From an uncultured Oscillospiraceae bacterium (lineage in GTDB: Bacteria > Bacillota > Clostridia > Oscillospirales > Oscillospiraceae): 64,000 bases of DNA. The notes under the pieces were generated by a model. It made no database searches and was not told the DNA's origin. It saw nothing but the letters and a program-made list of their open reading frames with translations. The DNA lies in assembly GCA_944385035.1 (NCBI GenBank), contig CALWVV010000004.1:112249-176248 (forward strand), read 5' to 3'. A program made the translations under genes and the position numbers. Within the stretch, counting starts at the first letter, position 1. Each line of letters begins with the position of its first letter. This document shows, piece after piece, positions 56,726-64,000 of the stretch.

Positions 56726-57913
56726 TCAGCCTTCCCGTCCCTGCTTGCGGCGCAGGTTGGTCAGGAAGTTGTCCATCCGGGCGATGGACTCGGCGATATC
56801 CTTCATGGACGCGGCGTAGCAGGCTCGGACAAAGCCCTCACCTCCGGGGCCGAAGGCGTTGCCGGGAATGACGGCCACCTTCTCCTCCATGAGGAAGCGC
56901 TCGCAGAACTCCTCACTGGTCAGGCCCGTGGAACGGATATCCGGGAACACATAGAAGGCACCCTTGGGCTCGAAGCAGGAAAGGCCGATGCGGTTGAGGT
57001 TTTCCACCAGATACCGGCGGCGGCGGTCGTACTCCTCCCGCATGTGCTCGATATCCCCGTCCCCGTTGCGCATGGCCTCTACGGCGGCGTACTGGCTGGT
57101 GGTGGGGGCAGACATGATGCCAAACTGGTGCAGCTTGGTCATGGCAGCAATGATGGGCTTGGGGGCACACACATAGCCCATGCGCCAGCCGGTCATGGCA
57201 TGGCTCTTGGAGAAGCCGTTGACCACCACGGTGCGCTCATACATGTCGGTGAGGTTGGCCAGGGACACATGGCGCTGACCATAGGTGAGCTCGGCGTAGA
57301 TCTCGTCGGAGATGACCATGATATCGGTGCCCCGCAGGACCTCGGCAATGGCCTCCAGATCCCGGCGCTCCATAATGCCGCCGGTGGGGTTGGAGGGGAA
57401 GGGCAGCACCAGCACCTTGGTCTTGTCGGTGATGGCGGCCTTCAGCTGCTCGGGGGTAAGGCGGAACTGATCCTCCGCCTTCAGTTCAATATATTGGGGC
57501 ACGCCCCCGGCCATCTCAGCCAGAGGACCGTAGCACACAAAGGAGGGCACGGGGATAATCACTTCATCCCCGGGGTTGATCATAACCCGAAGGGCCAGGT
57601 CAATGGCCTCGCTGCCGCCCACGGTGACCAGGATCTGACCGTTATAGTCATACTGCAAATCAAAGCGGCGGTTGAGGTAAGCGGAAATCTCCCGCCGCAG
57701 CTGAAGCATACCGGCGTTGGAGGTATATTTGGTGTGGCCGCGCTCCAGGGAGTAGATGCCCGCGTCCCGGATGTGCCAGGGGGTGACAAAGTCAGGTTCT
57801 CCGATGCCCAGCGAAATAGCGTCGGTCATCTCCTCCAGAATGTCAAAAAATTTCCGAATTCCAGAGGGTTTGATCCCCTGAATCTTCTCATTCAGGATGT
57901 TGTCGTAATTCAT
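56726..57913 (-). CDS. Class I/II aminotransferase (PatA/AspB-like)
   Basis: This 395-residue PLP enzyme has VTVGGSEAIDLALR, LPFPSNPTGGIMERRDLE (about 165-182), VISDEIYAELTYG and NGFSKSHAMTGWRMGY (about 228-243) with the Schiff-base Lys. It overlaps the upstream Lrp-type regulator by four bases and is followed 23 bases later by thrH. Coupling to an Lrp/AsnC regulator suggests amino-acid-responsive expression. The true amino donor is unknown. Confidence 0.9.
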   Translation of the reverse strand: MNYDNILNEKIQGIKPSGIRKFFDILEEMTDAISLGIGEPDFVTPWHIRDAGIYSLERGHTKYTSNAGMLQLRREISAYLNRRFDLQYDYNGQILVTVGGSEAIDLALRVMINPGDEVIIPVPSFVCYGPLAEMAGGVPQYIELKAEDQFRLTPEQLKAAITDKTKVLVLPFPSNPTGGIMERRDLEAIAEVLRGTDIMVISDEIYAELTYGQRHVSLANLTDMYERTVVVNGFSKSHAMTGWRMGYVCAPKPIIAAMTKLHQFGIMSAPTTSQYAAVEAMRNGDGDIEHMREEYDRRRRYLVENLNRIGLSCFEPKGAFYVFPDIRSTGLTSEEFCERFLMEEKVAVIPGNAFGPGGEGFVRACYAASMKDIAESIARMDNFLTNLRRKQGREG

Positions 57914-58389
57914 ACGAAGATGTACTCCCTTTCCTCAGGCTCCTGGGGGCGGAACACCAGGTGCTTCTCTTTATATTTTCTCAAAATGAAGTGGGTCGCC
58001 GTACCGGTGACGCCCTGGATGGTGGACAGCCGGTCGCCCACAAACATGGCCACTTCCCGCAGGGTGCGCCCGGAGATGATAATGGCCAGGTCAAAGGAAC
58101 CGCTCATGAGATACATGCTCTCCACCTCGTCATACTGGTAGATGCGCTCAGCAATGCGGTCAAAGCCGTCGATGGACTGGGGCGTCACATTTACCTCGAT
58201 CAGGGCAGTCACCGTCTCTTTCCGCACCCGGTCCCAGTCGATGATGGCCTGATAGCCCAAAATAACCCGCTCGTCCTCATATTTTTTAATGGCGGCCTTT
58301 GCCTCTGCCTCCGGCACTCCAGCGGCGGCGGCCAGCTGAGCCGTGGACATGGTGCAGTCCTGCTCCAGCAGTTCCAGCAGCTTCTCCAT
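57910..58389 (-). CDS. Lrp/AsnC family transcription regulator
   Basis: This 159-residue regulator has a winged helix at the N-terminus (about 1-50, MSTAQLAAAAGVPEAEAKAAIKKYEDERVILGYQAIIDW) and a C-terminal RAM ligand-binding domain (about 65-140). ATG 58389, with GGAGGG seven bases upstream, is preferred; ATG 58410 and the open frame to 58518 are less likely. It is the first gene of the cluster down to ispE and probably senses an amino acid. Confidence 0.9.
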   Translation of the reverse strand: MEKLLELLEQDCTMSTAQLAAAAGVPEAEAKAAIKKYEDERVILGYQAIIDWDRVRKETVTALIEVNVTPQSIDGFDRIAERIYQYDEVESMYLMSGSFDLAIIISGRTLREVAMFVGDRLSTIQGVTGTATHFILRKYKEKHLVFRPQEPEEREYIFV

Positions 58390-58440
58390 GGACGTTCCCT
58401 CCAAAATCATTGAATTTCCGGTCCCTTCCGGTTTCTTTTT

Positions 58441-58469
58441 ATTATAATCGATGATAAGCAAAGCCGCAA
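58441..58469 (-). promoter_or_regulatory. Promoter of the Lrp regulator gene
   Basis: TATAAT (58446-58441) has TTGCGG (58469-58464) 17 bases upstream on the minus strand. The -35 lies within the preceding terminator stem. Confidence 0.5.
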
Positions 58470-58493
58470 GCCCTATTTGGGCCTGCGGCTTTG
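58459..58493 (-). terminator. Hairpin after the TRAP permease gene
   Basis: A near-perfect stem (58459-58473 with 58479-58493, one mismatch) follows the permease gene. No clear T-run is present, so termination may be incomplete. Confidence 0.6.
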
Positions 58494-58525
58494 GGAGGTC
58501 TGGGAAGGGATCGCGCATCCGCCGC

Positions 58526-60505
58526 TCAGGCGGCAGCCGCTTCCTTCTTGGTGGTCATGCGCAGGAAGACGTAGATACCGGCCACGACGACCAGGCCTAC
58601 CACATCGGAGATGGGCTCGGGCACCAGCATAGCCAGACCGCCTGCAGCCATGAGCACACGGAAGAAGATGTTCATGGGTTTGAACAGGAAGCCGTTGAGG
58701 GCGGCAGCCACGCCGAAGATGCCCAGCAGAGAGGTGACGCAGATCTGGATCACCTGGAGCACCGCGGCAAAGCCGGTCACGTCAAACTCAAAGAGCATAG
58801 CCGGGTTCATGGCAAAAATATAGGGCACGATGAACGCGGCAATGGCCAGACGAGTGGCATTGAAAGCGGTCTTCATAGGCGGAGCCTTGGCAATGGCAGA
58901 GCCGGCGTAGGCGGCCAGAGCCACGGGCGGGGTGATGTCGGCCACGATGCCAAAGTAGAACACGAAGAAGTGGGCGGCCACGGCAGGAATGCCGATCTCC
59001 GGGCTCATCAGGATGGGCGCGCAGGTGGAAGCCATGATGCAGTAGTTGGCGGTAGTGGGCACGCCCATGCCCAGGACGATACAGCACAGCATGGTCAGGA
59101 ACAGGGCGATGAAGGCCCGTCCGCCGGACACGGCCACGATGGCGGTGATGAGCTTGGAAGCAAGACCAGTGGAGGTAATACAGCCGGCCACGATACCAGC
59201 CATGGCACAGGCCACCGCTACGGTGATGGTGCCCTTGCCGCCAGCCTCCAGAGCGTCAAAGAACTTCGCCAGGGTAATGCGGTCGTCCTTGTTCACAAGG
59301 CCAACCAGGATGGTAATGATGATCGCCACAGCCGCGCAGAACTGCATGGTGCGCATATTCAGAGAGACCATGACTACCAGCACCACCAGAGGCAGCAGCA
59401 GGTAGATCTTGGGCAGCAGGCTGACAATGCGGGGCAGCTCACTGCGGGGAATACCCTTCAGGCCCAGCTTTTTGGCCTCCAGGTGGACGGCGATGTAAAT
59501 GCCGGTGAAGTACAGCACGGCGGGCAGGACGGCTTTCAAAGCCACCTGGCCGTAGGGGATGCCCATGTACTCGGCCATCAGGAAGGCGGCAGCGCCCATG
59601 ATGGGGGGCATGATCTGGCCGCCGGTGGAGGCAGATGCCTCGACCGCGCCGGCAAACTCCGGCTTATAGCCGGTACGCTTCATCATGGGGATGGTCACAG
59701 AACCGGTGGTCACGGTGTTGCCCACGGAGGAGCCGGACACCATGCCGCACAGGGCGGAGGAAATCACGGCCACCTTGGCGGGACCGCCGGCAGAGGAGCC
59801 GGCAATGGAGTTGGCTAGGTTAATGAAGAAGTTGGAAATGCCGGTACGCTCCAGGAACGCGCCGAAGATGATGAACACCACGATGTACTTGGAGCACACC
59901 TGCACCGGGGTGCCCATAATGCCGTTGGTGGTGAAGAACAGGTCATAAACCACCTTGCCGAAGCGGACCGTGGCGAAGGTATAGATGAGCAGGGCGCCGG
60001 CCACACACAGAATGGGCAGGCCCACACACCGGCGGCACAGCTCCACCAGCGCCAGCGTACCGATGATGGCAATGGCCACCAGCAGCGGATCTTTGGATAC
60101 TTTGGTGGCCAGCATCAGAATTTCCCGGGCCCGAAAGGAGAAGTACAGGAATGAGCCTGCACCCAGGATCATAATAATCCAGTCATACCACGGCAGGTAG
60201 TTGACCTTGGTGATCCCCTTCTTGATGGGGTAGTTCAGATAACCAATGACCAGAATAAACGCCAGAAAGCGGGTCAGCCGGATCTCCAGCAGTCCGCCTA
60301 CAAACAGGGTCACATAAATGCAGTACAAAGAGAAGAGCACCATGATCGTTTTTACGATCAGCTTGGGCGTCCCCTCCCAAATGCGGGTGTTGGACTCACG
60401 GTCATACTTTTTCATGACCTCATCCACATCAGCGGCGGTACCTACGGAAGTATCGACTTCTTCCGCCTGGCTGTCCACCAGCTTCTTGTTGTCTTTCGAC
60501 TCCAT
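58526..60505 (-). CDS. TRAP transporter fused permease (TAXI type, DctQM)
   Basis: This 659-residue membrane protein is a fusion of the small and large TRAP permease subunits. After a polar start it has about 16 or more helices. The central part holds the DctM features GAFLERTGISNFFINLANSIAGSSAGGPAKVAVISSALCGMVSGSSVGNTVTTGSVTIPMM, given here as overlapping short marks, and SASTGGQIMPPIMGAAAFLMAEY. Such permeases use a sodium gradient together with a TAXI binding protein, encoded just upstream. The substrate is not evident; TAXI systems often import C4 or C5 dicarboxylates or amino acids. Confidence 0.9.
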   Translation of the reverse strand: MESKDNKKLVDSQAEEVDTSVGTAADVDEVMKKYDRESNTRIWEGTPKLIVKTIMVLFSLYCIYVTLFVGGLLEIRLTRFLAFILVIGYLNYPIKKGITKVNYLPWYDWIIMILGAGSFLYFSFRAREILMLATKVSKDPLLVAIAIIGTLALVELCRRCVGLPILCVAGALLIYTFATVRFGKVVYDLFFTTNGIMGTPVQVCSKYIVVFIIFGAFLERTGISNFFINLANSIAGSSAGGPAKVAVISSALCGMVSGSSVGNTVTTGSVTIPMMKRTGYKPEFAGAVEASASTGGQIMPPIMGAAAFLMAEYMGIPYGQVALKAVLPAVLYFTGIYIAVHLEAKKLGLKGIPRSELPRIVSLLPKIYLLLPLVVLVVMVSLNMRTMQFCAAVAIIITILVGLVNKDDRITLAKFFDALEAGGKGTITVAVACAMAGIVAGCITSTGLASKLITAIVAVSGGRAFIALFLTMLCCIVLGMGVPTTANYCIMASTCAPILMSPEIGIPAVAAHFFVFYFGIVADITPPVALAAYAGSAIAKAPPMKTAFNATRLAIAAFIVPYIFAMNPAMLFEFDVTGFAAVLQVIQICVTSLLGIFGVAAALNGFLFKPMNIFFRVLMAAGGLAMLVPEPISDVVGLVVVAGIYVFLRMTTKKEAAAA

Positions 60506-60674: not shown

Positions 60675-61733
60675 TTACTTGGTGGGAACCTCGATGCCCT
60701 TCTCGGCGAAGTACTCAGCAGCACCGGGGTGATAGGGAACGGCGGTGTTGGAAGCGGCAAACTCCAGATCCAGCTCAGCGCCCTTGGAGTGAGCCTGGGC
60801 CAGGCCCTCGGCGTTCTCGAAGGTACCGAACAGGAAGTTATACACGTCCTCGTTGGACACGTCATCCCGTGCGATGACAGTGGCGACCACGGCCACGGTG
60901 GTGGCGTCGGCGTCCATGTTGTAGGTATCAGCGGAAATCACGGCCTTGCTGTAGTAGGGAGAAGACTCCTGCAGCTTGGCAATGTGCTCGTCATCCAGGT
61001 TGACCAGGTACACGTCCTTGGTGGTGGACAGAGAGGTAATGGCAGTGGTGGGAGCGCCGGCAACCACGAAGGCAGCGTCGATCTTGCCGTCCTGGAGGGA
61101 CTCAGCACTGGTGCCGAAGTCCTCATAGGTGGCGTTGATGTCGCTCTCAGTCATGTCATAAGCGGCCAACACATCAACGGCATTGTAATACACGCCGGAG
61201 CCGGGAGCGCCGATGGACACGCTCTTGCCCTTCAGATCAGCCACGGTCTTGATGTCGGGGTTCAGGGTGACGATCTGAACCTGCTCCATGTACAGAGCCG
61301 CCACAGTGGAGAAGTCGGTGATGGGCTCGCCCTCGAAGTTACGGATACCCTGGTAGGCATAGGCCATAACGTCGGACTGTACGAAGCCCAGCTGAGCGTC
61401 GCCAGCCTCCATGTTCTCAATGTTGGCCTGGGAACCGCCAGACACAATGGCAGTCACCTTAGTGCTGGTGGCATCGCCCACCTTCTGGGCCACAACGCCG
61501 CCAAAGCCGTAGTAAGTGCCCTGGTCACCGCCGGTGGTAAAGTTCAGGCTGGTGCCGCCCTCTTTGCCGCCTTTAACGGTCTCGATCACAGTCTCGCTGC
61601 TGTCGCCGGAGCTGGCGGCCTGGCTGCCGGAGGATGCCTGGCTGCCGGAAGAGGCAGTGTTCCCACCGCAAGCGGTAAGCGCCATGCTCATAACCATGGC
61701 GAGGGAAAGAGCAATCGCAATCTTCTTTTTCAT
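60675..61733 (-). CDS. TAXI family TRAP transporter solute-binding lipoprotein
   Basis: This 352-residue protein has a lipoprotein signal (MKKKIAIALSLAMVMSMALTAC, Cys about 22), a Ser/Gly-rich linker (about 25-50), and a TAXI-type binding domain beginning SLNFTTGGDQGTYYGFGGVVAQ and continuing with SGGSQANIENMEAGDAQLGFVQSD. The start ATG has GGAGGAAAG upstream; the extra codons to 61787 lie in the leader. It supplies substrate to the fused permease downstream. Confidence 0.92.
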   Translation of the reverse strand: MKKKIAIALSLAMVMSMALTACGGNTASSGSQASSGSQAASSGDSSETVIETVKGGKEGGTSLNFTTGGDQGTYYGFGGVVAQKVGDATSTKVTAIVSGGSQANIENMEAGDAQLGFVQSDVMAYAYQGIRNFEGEPITDFSTVAALYMEQVQIVTLNPDIKTVADLKGKSVSIGAPGSGVYYNAVDVLAAYDMTESDINATYEDFGTSAESLQDGKIDAAFVVAGAPTTAITSLSTTKDVYLVNLDDEHIAKLQESSPYYSKAVISADTYNMDADATTVAVVATVIARDDVSNEDVYNFLFGTFENAEGLAQAHSKGAELDLEFAASNTAVPYHPGAAEYFAEKGIEVPTK

Positions 61734-61791
61734 TTTTCTTTCCTCCAATTTCCAAGTTTGGATTTGCAAAGCAATCTGCACTTGCATGATT

Positions 61792-61957: not shown

Positions 61958-62032
61958 TCAAGGCGTCCAGCCCTCCATCCCCTGGTGCAGCTTCTCCAAC
62001 GCCCTCTTTTCAATGCGTGAGACATAGCGACT
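61958..62032 (-). pseudogene. sigK: 3' end of a SigK-like sporulation sigma factor gene, separated from its 5' part
   Basis: Read on the minus strand, 62032-61958 encodes SRYVSRIEKRALEKLHQG and six further residues before TGA. The YVSRIEKRALEKL part is the end of the region 4 helix-turn-helix in SigK (compare SQSYVSRIEKRAL in other spore formers). Directly upstream the frame meets a TAG (62038-62036), and then comes the end of the serine recombinase gene, so no start or other sigma region is present. The sigma gene is cut here. The rest probably lies beyond the right end of the window. The match is from memory of the family, not from a search. Confidence 0.65.
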
Positions 62033-62054
62033 CGCCTATTGTAAACGATGCCCT

Positions 62055-63632
62055 TTAAGAAATCGCCTCCAACTCATGGAAGCGGAATTTGATAATAATC
62101 TCTTTTTTCTCGGTCAGCTCTACTCGTTCAATGAGGCTGACCAGCAGTTCCCGGCTCTCCCCTGCAGTTTCGATGAACCTCTGCACCAGTTCCCTGGCCT
62201 GGTCCTCACTGGGGATGGGGCTTTTTTTCTGCAACTCCAGGGCCTGCCGTTTTTCCTCCAGCTGCTCCCGCTCCCCTTTGATCCGGCCGAAGATGCGCTG
62301 GAAGTCCGCCTCCGGCAATAGTCCGCTGAGCCGGTCGGTGTACATCCGGTCCAGGTTGGCGGTGAGGTTGTCAATCTTGGACTGGAGTGTCTGGAGCTCC
62401 ATCTCCAGGCTGCTCTGCTTCCCGGCCTTCTCTACGGCTTCCCGAGCCACAGGCAGCAGCTCGTCTGGGTTCAGGTAGGCCTGGCAGATCTCCCGTACCT
62501 TGGCGACCACCGCGTCGGTCACCGTCTTCTCCTTGATGGAGTGGCAGGTGCAGACGCCCCCTTTGGTAAAACGCTGGTAAGTACGGCAGACGAAGTACAG
62601 CACATCCTCTCCCCTGGCGTTTTTTCGGTTAAGCACCGCCAGCGGATAGCCACACTCGTGGCAGAAGATCATCCCTTTCAGCAGAAAGTCGTAGGTTCGG
62701 CTCCGGGTGTGCTTTCGGCTGTTGACCAGCATCCGCACTTTCCGGAAGGTTTCAGCGTCCACCAAAGGCTCGTGCGTGCCCTCCACCACCACCCAATTGG
62801 CCGGGTCCTGGCGCAGGCACTTTTTTGACTTGTAACTGATCTTCACGCTGCGCCCCTGGACCATGTTGCCGATGTAGGTCTCGTTTTGCAGCATATCGGA
62901 GATCCGCTCGCTGCTCCATAGTCCGGTATAGGGGCCGGGTCTTGCCACCGGGAGATTGGCATAGCTGGCCGGAGTGGGCACTCCCTCCTGGTTGAGGAGG
63001 GTTGCAATGTTCCGGCAGCTTATGCCGGAGAGGGCCAGGGCGAAGATTCGCCGCACGATGGGCGCCACTTCCTCGTCGATGACGATTTTGTTTTTCTCCG
63101 TGGGGTGCATCTTGTAGCCGTACACCGGCTTGCCGCCGATGAACTGTCCCTTCCGCTGCTTATCCCGCTTGACGCTCTTGATCTTCTTGGAAATGTCCTT
63201 TGCGTACATGTCGTTCATGATGGCCCGGAAGGGCGTGATATCGTTAGCCGTGGAGTCCACGCCGGTGTCAATGCCGTCCAGCAGGGAGATGTACCGCACC
63301 CGGTGCTCCGGGAAATACCGCTCCATGTAGTGGCCGGTCATGATGTAGTCACGGCCCAGACGGGAAAGGTCCTTGGTAATGACCATATTTACCTTCTTGG
63401 CCTCAATATCGGCAATCATTCGCTGGAAGCTGGGACGATCAAAATTGGTCCCGCTCCAGCCGTCATCTATATAGGTATCGTAGACGCTCAGCCTATGCTG
63501 CTGCACGAACTCCCGCAGCAGGGATTCCTGGTTCTGAACGCTCTGGGATGGGCCTTCGCTCTCATCCTCCTTGGATAGTCTGATGTATAAAGCCGCATGG
63601 TAATCCATGGGATTGCTTATCTCTAAGTACAT
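62055..63632 (-). CDS. Large serine recombinase (SpoIVCA/TndX-like)
   Basis: This 525-residue site-specific recombinase begins at ATG 63632 behind AGGAGGTACGAC. The resolvase domain has the nucleophile Ser20 in LYIRLSKED, then DDGWSGTNFDRPSFQRM and VITKDLSRLGRDY. The recombinase domain includes GKPVYGYKMHPTEKNKIVID and a zinc ribbon with CHEC, a later CRTYQ and CTCHS. A coiled-coil stretch follows (about 400-470). Its stop is 22 bases from the sigK-like fragment on the same strand, so it is the likely integrase and excisionase of that junction, as SpoIVCA is for skin. It could also belong to a conjugative transposon. Confidence 0.9.
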   Translation of the reverse strand: MYLEISNPMDYHAALYIRLSKEDESEGPSQSVQNQESLLREFVQQHRLSVYDTYIDDGWSGTNFDRPSFQRMIADIEAKKVNMVITKDLSRLGRDYIMTGHYMERYFPEHRVRYISLLDGIDTGVDSTANDITPFRAIMNDMYAKDISKKIKSVKRDKQRKGQFIGGKPVYGYKMHPTEKNKIVIDEEVAPIVRRIFALALSGISCRNIATLLNQEGVPTPASYANLPVARPGPYTGLWSSERISDMLQNETYIGNMVQGRSVKISYKSKKCLRQDPANWVVVEGTHEPLVDAETFRKVRMLVNSRKHTRSRTYDFLLKGMIFCHECGYPLAVLNRKNARGEDVLYFVCRTYQRFTKGGVCTCHSIKEKTVTDAVVAKVREICQAYLNPDELLPVAREAVEKAGKQSSLEMELQTLQSKIDNLTANLDRMYTDRLSGLLPEADFQRIFGRIKGEREQLEEKRQALELQKKSPIPSEDQARELVQRFIETAGESRELLVSLIERVELTEKKEIIIKFRFHELEAIS

Positions 63633-63984
63633 GTCGTACCTCCTGAGACAAGCGGCCATCCATCATAAATATCATAATATTTTGCGCCCATATCGTTATA
63701 TTTTCGACCTGTTTTGGAGATTTTTCTCTATAAAAAGCCGCAAACATCCTGTCATTAGTTTCGGCAGCTTTTCTCCTTCTTCTGTGAAAAAACAATGGAC
63801 AACCGGCACCTGTCCATTCCGTTTCACTGGCATTCCCTCCTTTCCAGTTTGTTACAGCTTATGCTGTCAAAAGACATACCATACTCCATTCCATCTTCAA
63901 CCCACCTATATTTACGTCTCACGGTGGGTCTGTTGACAAAGTGCCACATAATCATGGGCTGGCAGAATAAGTGGGAAGAAAAAA
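63633..63984. other. Gene-free AT-rich stretch upstream of the recombinase gene
   Basis: This interval is AT-richer than its surroundings. I see no gene with a proper ribosome binding site; the open frame at 63607-63936 (+) has unusual composition and crosses the recombinase start. A promoter for the recombinase should lie here, but no sigma-A site is clear, which would fit use of a sporulation sigma factor. Confidence 0.5.
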
Positions 63985-64000
63985 GACGCCCTATGGCGTC
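63979..64000 (-). terminator. Intrinsic terminator of a minus-strand gene beyond the window
   Basis: GACGCC/GGCGTC (63985-63990 with 63995-64000) is followed on the minus strand by six T residues. Its gene lies to the right of the window. Confidence 0.7.

What the first reader, a model, noticed from the sequence alone, without database searches (positions are those of the whole stretch)
61958..63632. Serine recombinase next to a severed sigK 3' end: probable sigK-intervening (skin-like) element
On the minus strand the recombinase stop at 62055 is followed, 22 bases on, by 24 codons that read as the C-terminal end of SigK, without any upstream sigma sequence. In Bacillus subtilis and Clostridioides difficile a serine recombinase excises the skin element in the mother cell to rebuild sigK. 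Here the break lies much closer to the 3' end of the gene than in B. subtilis, where it falls in the middle of the gene. This would be a distinct insertion point and perhaps an independent skin-like lineage.
Basis: partly seen in the sequence, partly recalled or inferred. Interest (0 to 1): 0.88.

Follow-up and report, generated by a model that had tools for sequence, protein, structure and literature searches.

The report
Mobile element splitting sporulation gene sigK
A small mobile DNA element sits inside the gene for a late sporulation switch in a gut bacterium and very probably cuts itself out to restore the gene; relatives carry up to three such elements in the same gene.

Summary
Confirmed and extended. 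The recombinase (window 62055-63632, minus) ends at an attachment site followed by the last 21 codons of sigK. The missing 5' part (211 codons, ending ...ISRSY) lies on another contig, C24:17060-17694. No intact sigK was found in the draft assembly. Joined at the shared GT, the halves give a 231-aa SigK, 210/231 identical to an intact relative. Both contigs end inside one insertion sequence that splits a hairpin, so they are neighbours. A single-contig genus-mate shows the empty site with the same flanking genes.

The break is one of three sigK sites used in this genus: by my tally 33 of 64 genomes are interrupted, 7 at two or three sites. One recombinase family targets this site: of 97 distinct records, 76 have it before the sigK 3' end and 10 are inverted, with AC at the crossover instead of GT. 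A small ORF (43 aa here) precedes it in 73 of 74 loci, a candidate directionality factor. Complete elements measure 2.4-9.8 kb; in 8 of 12 tested, a cargo protein matches an anti-phage defence model. Severed tails look selectively maintained. Excision, its timing and the ORF's role are inferred; no sporulation promoter was found.

The parts
62055..63632 (-). Large serine recombinase (525 aa from ATG 63632; 534 aa from ATG 63659), predicted to integrate and excise the element
   Evidence: Pfam Resolvase 4.5e-22, Recombinase 4.3e-23, Zn_ribbon_recom 1.1e-12. Ser20 of YIRLSKED invariant in all 16 aligned sequences.
61958..62023 (-). 3' end of sigK: 21 codons plus stop (VSRIEKRALEKLHQGMEGWTP*)
62024..62048 (-). 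Recombinase-side attachment arm (25 nt, TCGTTTACAATAGGCGAGTCGCTAT), element half of attR
   Evidence: same 25-nt spacing in forward and inverted relatives; inverted counterpart TAATGTAAACGA after the sigK 5' part on C24
62022..62023 (-). Predicted crossover dinucleotide GT (centre of the attP dyad; shared by attL, attR and the empty sites)
   Evidence: inferred from comparison, not tested biochemically
63696..63827 (-). 43-aa ORF (GTG start, MKRNGQVPVVHC...), candidate recombination directionality factor
   Evidence: homologue upstream of the recombinase in 73 of 74 loci; none at E<1e-3 upstream of 29 less similar recombinases or of 12 site-1/site-2 recombinases; no match in Pfam or PHROGs
63905..63923 (.). 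One half of a hairpin (CGTGAGACGTAAATATAGG on the minus strand); its other half is on contig C24 just before 21519
63924..64000 (.). End of an insertion sequence that breaks the assembly inside the element
   Evidence: inverted end GTGGGTCTGTTGACAAAGT shared with the end of C24; the C24 end also matches C7:2-76 and C7:119786-119855
60675..61787 (-). Chromosomal flank: TAXI-type solute receptor gene next to the sigK 3' end, followed by TRAP (58526-60505), Lrp-like (57910-58518) and aminotransferase (56726-57913) genes; names given by eye, no family search
   Evidence: same order next to intact sigK in single-contig genus-mate G012

Best explanation
This is a sigK-intervening (skin-like) element. 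Shown by sequence: a large serine recombinase next to a severed sigK 3' end, the partner 5' end elsewhere in the assembly, matching attachment half-sites with a shared GT core, and an empty site with the same flanks in a relative. Inferred: the recombinase integrated a circular element at the Val codon of SRSYVSRIEK by an attP x attB crossover at GT. During sporulation the 43-aa ORF just upstream acts as directionality factor and lets the recombinase excise the element in the mother cell. That rebuilds sigK, while the spore keeps the element. The element family carries variable cargo, in several cases with defence-gene matches, and is kept because the host needs sigK when it sporulates.
For: Split sigK with no intact copy found. 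Joined product 231 aa in frame, 210/231 identical to an intact relative. Palindromic arms and core at both junctions in many genomes. Contigs C24 and C4 linked by one insertion sequence splitting a hairpin. Empty site with the same neighbours in single-contig G012. Severed tails look maintained: in codons 7-12, which my filter did not fix, 49% of differing codons are synonymous against 26% for random single changes, codon positions 1/2/3 vary 0.21/0.15/0.39, and 0 of 66 tails has a stop in codons 7-15. attP-like sequence together with an intact sigK in two genomes, G079 and G068. Sporulation genes in the host: SpoIVA over cut-off; SpoIIID 106.5 bits, just under its cut-off of 111.5.
Against: No direct evidence of excision or of sporulation in this organism. 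No sigma-E, sigma-K or sigma-A promoter pattern is enriched upstream of the small ORF: sigma-E 1 of 70 regions against 1.1 expected. The attP-bearing contigs show no terminal overlap, so circularity is unproven, and an intact sigK beside attP could also come from a mixed population. The genome is an 89.5% complete draft in 53 contigs, so an intact second sigK in the missing part cannot be fully excluded.
Confidence: 0.88

Rival explanations
1. The element is integrated in sigK but excision is no longer regulated or functional: sigK is a dead target, and the host does not sporulate or sporulates without SigK.
For: No sporulation-type promoter found. 9 of 64 genus genomes have no sigK row over 60% identity; in three of these (G024, G049, G069) a sigK 3' end is seen beside the recombinase, which leaves 6 unseen, through loss or incomplete assembly.
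Against: Severed 3' tails keep more synonymous than random differences outside the filtered codons and no early stops. The joined window sigK is in frame. Interrupted copies in the genus are mostly over 75% identical to intact SigK in their pieces rather than decayed.
Confidence: 0.1
2. The two halves come from different strains or are a binning or assembly artefact of a draft genome.
For: Draft genome in 53 contigs; the halves are on separate contigs.
Against: Both contigs end in the same insertion sequence and their flanks are the two halves of one hairpin.
Confidence: 0.02
3. The recombinase only inserts; the small ORF is unrelated (for example an antitoxin or a leader peptide), and excision depends on another factor or on the recombinase alone.
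For: No function is known for the small-ORF family. The TndX-like relatives (34% identical) are recalled to excise without a separate factor.
Against: The ORF is present upstream of 73 of 74 recombinases of this family and is kept in the smallest element, about 2.4 kb with three genes.
Confidence: 0.3

Closest known systems
skin of Bacillus subtilis (skinBs, SpoIVCA, Skr)
   Same: Large serine recombinase in an element that splits sigK; small directionality factor gene next to the recombinase (PMC6957869, passages read).
   Different: skinBs is a 48-kb defective prophage at another site. Here complete elements are 2.4-9.8 kb and the break is 21 codons from the 3' end. A separate mid-gene site (site 2, IEN|EIL) also exists in this genus; its identity with the B. 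subtilis site is recalled, not tested. Sequence identity to SpoIVCA was not tested.
skinCd of Clostridioides difficile (CD1231, CD1234)
   Same: [quoted passage not shown] inverted arms and short core (PMC5025042, passages read).
   Different: 14.6 kb (PMC10745906, passage); RDF gene not adjacent to the recombinase by locus number. The exact codon was not available to me, so sameness of site with C. difficile is untested.
Island IV of Bacillus cereus biovar anthracis and related sigK islands
   Same: Non-prophage island in sigK with a restriction-modification system, excised at sporulation (PMC10745906, passages read).
   Different: 22 kb at nt 195 of sigK, recombinase next to the 5' part and 31% identical to SpoIVCA. 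By position it resembles site 1 here (about codon 65), not site 3; not aligned.
gin element in gerE (Bacillus cereus ATCC 10987)
   Same: Non-viral gene-intervening element with serine recombinase and extra factor, excised at sporulation (PMC5595907, passages read).
   Different: Other target gene, 28.6 kb, three recombinases.
Alicyclobacillus phage MMB025 and C. perfringens phage PhiS63 (sigK-integrating phages)
   Same: Integrate in sigK through a recombinase (PMC13141910, one section and passages read).
   Different: Full phages. The MMB025 attP region has other arms and core, and no phage record with a match reaches 60% identity to this recombinase (0 of 737). PhiS63 was seen only as cited in other papers (paper not held).
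TndX family (Tn5397-type)
   Same: Serine recombinase; 34% identity over 96% of the query.
   Different: Transposon integrase with other targets (recalled); no sigK link known to me.

Membership tests
sigK-intervening (skin) element | sigK split into 5' and 3' parts that join in frame | tested here: met
sigK-intervening (skin) element | No uninterrupted sigK in the genome | tested here: met
   the only other full-length hit, on C10, is read as SigE (44% identical to SigK; ISQSYISR motif). Draft 89.5% complete.
sigK-intervening (skin) element | Site-specific serine recombinase encoded in the element beside one sigK part | tested here: met
sigK-intervening (skin) element | attL/attR with inverted arms and a short shared core | tested here: met
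sigK-intervening (skin) element | Excision as a circle restoring sigK | tested here: inconclusive
   attP-like sequence plus intact sigK in G079 and G068, but contigs show no terminal overlap; no reads available
sigK-intervening (skin) element | Excision limited to the mother cell (sigma-E/SpoIIID control of recombinase or RDF) | tested here: inconclusive
   Promoter scan of 70 regions showed no enrichment
sigK-intervening (skin) element | Recombination directionality factor encoded in the element | tested here: inconclusive
   Conserved small ORF is a candidate only
Prophage | Phage structural genes | tested here: inconclusive
   27 of the 77 cargo ORFs were scanned with Pfam and/or PADLOC: no structural gene among their matches. 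PHROGs was not run on cargo, and 50 ORFs were not scanned. Sizes of 2.4-9.8 kb speak against a full prophage.
TndX/Tn5397-type transposon | Recombinase orthologous to TndX | tested here: not met
   Only 34% identical to TndX

The most novel reading that the evidence does not exclude
In this gut genus sigK is a modular, multiply split gene. It is entered at three sites by unlike recombinases, and single genomes carry two (six genomes) or apparently three (G078) elements, so that up to four gene pieces must be joined by separate excisions before the last sporulation sigma factor can be made. The site-3 family is a spreading island family built on a minimal two-gene module (small directionality factor plus recombinase). 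It often carries anti-phage genes, is protected from loss because sporulation needs the excision machinery, and has reversed its insertion orientation several times by changing the crossover dinucleotide from GT to AC.
Probability: 0.5. Interest if true: 0.85.

Novelty: new variant of a known kind. Interest (0 to 1): 0.74.

Why it matters
It moves sigK interruption from a few model strains to a common state in one gut genus: 33 of 64 genomes by my tally, with several elements stacked in one gene in 7 of them. That makes open questions testable: why sigK is targeted again and again, whether stacked excisions time SigK, and whether defence genes hitch a ride on a gene that must be rebuilt for sporulation. 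The recombinase family, with one conserved target codon, two natural orientations and a candidate directionality factor, is also a ready set of new integrase pairs.

Tried and rejected
Rejected or left open: (1) Intact sigK elsewhere: not found. (2) Target is sigE rather than sigK in some relatives: the local tblastn score for SigE exceeded SigK in L163, L168, L184, but NCBIfam scored SigK above SigE in 8 of 8 fragments tested, own genome included. (3) Prophage: see membership test. (4) Sporulation promoter upstream of the small ORF: no enrichment. (5) Same site as phage MMB025: its attP arms and core differ. (6) Circular contigs for attP carriers: no terminal overlap in C42 of G068 or C40 of G079. 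(7) C. difficile insertion codon: not in the passages read; loci L228-L232, which I guessed might be skinCd, showed no sigK tail. (8) The first regular-expression search for the small ORF found 24 of 72; a profile built from those 24 replaced it, so those match by construction. All 77 hits at E<1e-3 are on the recombinase strand. (9) A first regular expression missed many sigK tails because the residue before Val is element-derived (39 of 84 found); corrected. (10) My first selection test (64% synonymous against 25%) included five codons whose residues my filter had fixed. I lowered the novel case from 0.55 to 0.50 because site-1 and site-2 recombinases were compared only with this one, not with each other.

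Limits: the link of forward with GT and inverted with AC is partly forced, because the host codon supplies the dinucleotide at the junction. The independent support is the constant 25-nt spacing, the variable element bases on both sides, and attP-like sequences with GT (L130, L095) and with AC (L192). PADLOC was run on 20 of 77 cargo ORFs, from 12 of the 18 elements, chosen towards large ORFs, with no control set; ATPase and Fic matches are not specific to defence. The tally of broken sites is my reading of the table plus junction checks; G023, G001 and a few others are known from one piece only or near a contig edge. In G078 the 116-213 piece was not found. Of 35 viral-collection loci only 4 entered the junction count; L213 and L214 (80-88% identical) are cut off inside the recombinase.

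Full report
Observation. The recombinase ORF ends at window 62055 on the minus strand. It is followed by an attachment arm and then by the C-terminal end of SigK. The tail alone matches SigK models weakly because it is short. The whole genome (G000, 2.52 Mb, 53 contigs, 89.5% complete; the window is C4:112249-176248, and C4 ends at the window's right edge) holds one other SigK piece, C24:17060-17710, covering model positions 2-213 and ending ISRSYVSQRR*. The only other full-length hit is SigE-like, on C10. Joined across the shared TATGT the two pieces give a 231-aa SigK, 210 of 231 identical to the intact SigK of genus-mate G013.

Linkage of the two contigs. C24 ends and C4 ends inside the same insertion sequence (end GTGGGTCTGTTGACAAAGT, shared in inverted orientation). 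The C24 end also matches two places on C7, one at its very start. The element DNA on either side of it forms two halves of one hairpin, ATATTTGCGTCTCAC and GTGAGACGTAAATAT. So I read C24 and C4 as adjacent and the gap as a repeat. Without the insertion sequence the element measures about 3826 + 1902 bp (C24 17693-21518 plus window 62022-63923). On the C24 side it carries a tyrosine recombinase and an SLH-domain protein.

Empty site. In the single-contig genus-mate G012 an intact sigK lies between the genes that flank the two halves here: TAXI, TRAP, Lrp-like and aminotransferase genes on the window side; flavodoxin, OYE-like and MarR-like genes on the C24 side (gene names given by eye).

Attachment site. 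Junctions in the genus loci and five empty sites share TATGTNTC in most cases. Adding G024 and L187 read by eye, and removing three duplicate forward rows, gives 76 forward and 10 inverted of 97. One has AT at the core with an Ile codon (L177), three look like attP (L130, L095, L192), and seven are unresolved (L158, L170, L178, L203, L208, L209, L210). The arms are inverted copies (TCGTTTACAATAG / CTAATGTAAACGA) centred on GT. Three inverted elements have their second junction in the same locus (L146, L149, L151). On the recombinase tree (84 rows, 11 labelled inverted, L192 among them) the label needs 6 changes, at least 4 forced by well-supported branches; several long branches are of unsure place. 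The role of the central dinucleotide in setting orientation is recalled for serine integrases; I saw only a search listing.

Three sites in one gene. My reading of the rows over 60% identical: 25 intact, 33 interrupted, 6 unseen. Site 1 (about codon 65, HIVKK) in 14, site 2 (IEN|EIL, junctions read in seven genomes) in 11, site 3 (this one) in 16. Doubles: G014, G042, G044 (1+3), G008, G021, G064 (1+2). G078 has all three, but its 116-213 piece was not found. G014 and G042 hold all three sigK pieces on one contig in order. Recombinases beside site 1 and site 2 are about 21-30% identical to this one over the aligned parts; they were not compared with each other. The biovar anthracis island at nt 195 (PMC10745906, passages) resembles site 1 by position; B. 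subtilis is recalled to use site 2.

Spread. The recombinase family at E <= 1e-150 occurs in 21 of 394 genomes drawn from the order and 5 of 391 from the class, own genome included in both. In the genus 16 of 64 have a copy 59% or more identical. Named carriers include Pseudoflavonifractor capillosus An827, Pseudoflavonifractor sp. 60, Oscillibacter valericigenes An907, Caproicibacter fermentans EA1, Anaerotruncus colihominis JM4-15 and Blautia wexlerae MSK.20.46. Among records with a match, no phage (0 of 737) or plasmid (0 of 400) reaches 60%. All eight sigma fragments tested with NCBIfam scored SigK above SigE.

Candidate directionality factor. A small ORF (43 aa in the window; profile of 37 positions, V-x-C-x-Y ... 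SFxLFL) sits just upstream of the recombinase in 73 of 74 loci with at least 150 nt upstream, L211 being the miss (the profile was seeded with 24 of them), always on the recombinase strand at E<1e-3. Of 31 further viral-set rows only L213 and L214, both of this family, match at E<1e-3; the other 29 and the 12 site-1/site-2 recombinases do not. Three members tested have no real match in Pfam or PHROGs (best 0.021 and 0.26). The smallest element, about 2.4 kb in G006, keeps a TspO-like gene (named from recall), this ORF (E=1.9e-8) and the recombinase.

Function. Of 66 severed tails, codons 7-12 (60 distinct stretches) show 49% synonymous among differing codons against 26% for random single changes, codon positions 1/2/3 vary 0.21/0.15/0.39, and none has a stop in codons 7-15. 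An earlier version, 64% against 25%, included codons that my filter had fixed. So the split-off tail appears still to be translated as SigK, which requires excision. Pairs of tails are not independent, so this is support, not proof. G079 and G068 contain an intact sigK together with an attP-like sequence, as excision would leave, though mixed populations would look the same. Against: no sporulation promoter signal upstream of the small ORF.

Cargo. 18 elements with both sigK junctions in hand measure 2.4-9.8 kb (17 of the 18, L170 being left out as unresolved, plus G006). PADLOC on 20 of the 77 cargo ORFs, from 12 elements, gave matches below 1e-19 in 8 elements: SIR2/ThsA-like (G010), Ppl and PDC-S01 (G005), GmrSD-like (G014), Pycsar cyclases and effector (L134), OLD/AAA-type (L138, L140), CARF (L154), Fic (L179). 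No such match in G042, G017, L198 or L166, where the one hit (1.5e-18) lies on a glycosidase (Pfam). No control set was run.

Novelty. Different sigK insertion points, restriction-type cargo and directionality factors are each known singly (PMC5025042, PMC6957869, PMC10745906, PMC5595907; passages read). In the listings of searches I saw no report of sigK interruption in Oscillospiraceae, of two or more elements in one sigK, or of this recombinase family; I read passages of only a few of the listed papers. Most subscription papers and preprints are not held.

Noticed in passing
L192 / G080:C23 158500-188800 (Anaerotruncus colihominis JM4-15): sigK 5' and 3' parts about 30 kb apart with an attP-like AC junction in between and sugar-metabolism-like genes nearby; looks like a composite or tandem insertion at site 3.
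   Followed up: partly
G003:C8:45288-45797 and 111974-112183: The sigK 3' part lies 66 kb before the 5' part on the same strand of one contig, the reverse of the expected order; rearrangement or circular contig.
   Followed up: no
G011:C1:3055127-3195562 and G043:C10: Site-2 interruptions with about 140 kb and 57 kb between the sigK parts, perhaps large prophages or islands; G040 has about 14.6 kb.
   Followed up: no
L177, L178 (Butyricicoccus MAGs): At the crossover L177 has AT and an Ile codon (ATA) instead of GT and Val, suggesting the core follows the host codon; AT is palindromic and would allow both orientations. L178 ends at its contig edge.
   Followed up: no
G056:C92:98-262: A sigK N-terminal fragment (1-55) near a contig edge besides an intact sigK; possible strain mixture or duplicate.
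   Followed up: no
G000:C35, C39, C2, C12, C31, C17 and C4:68093-69577: Eight further recombinase matches (25-31% identical) in the window's genome, three at contig ends (C35, C39, C31).
   Followed up: no
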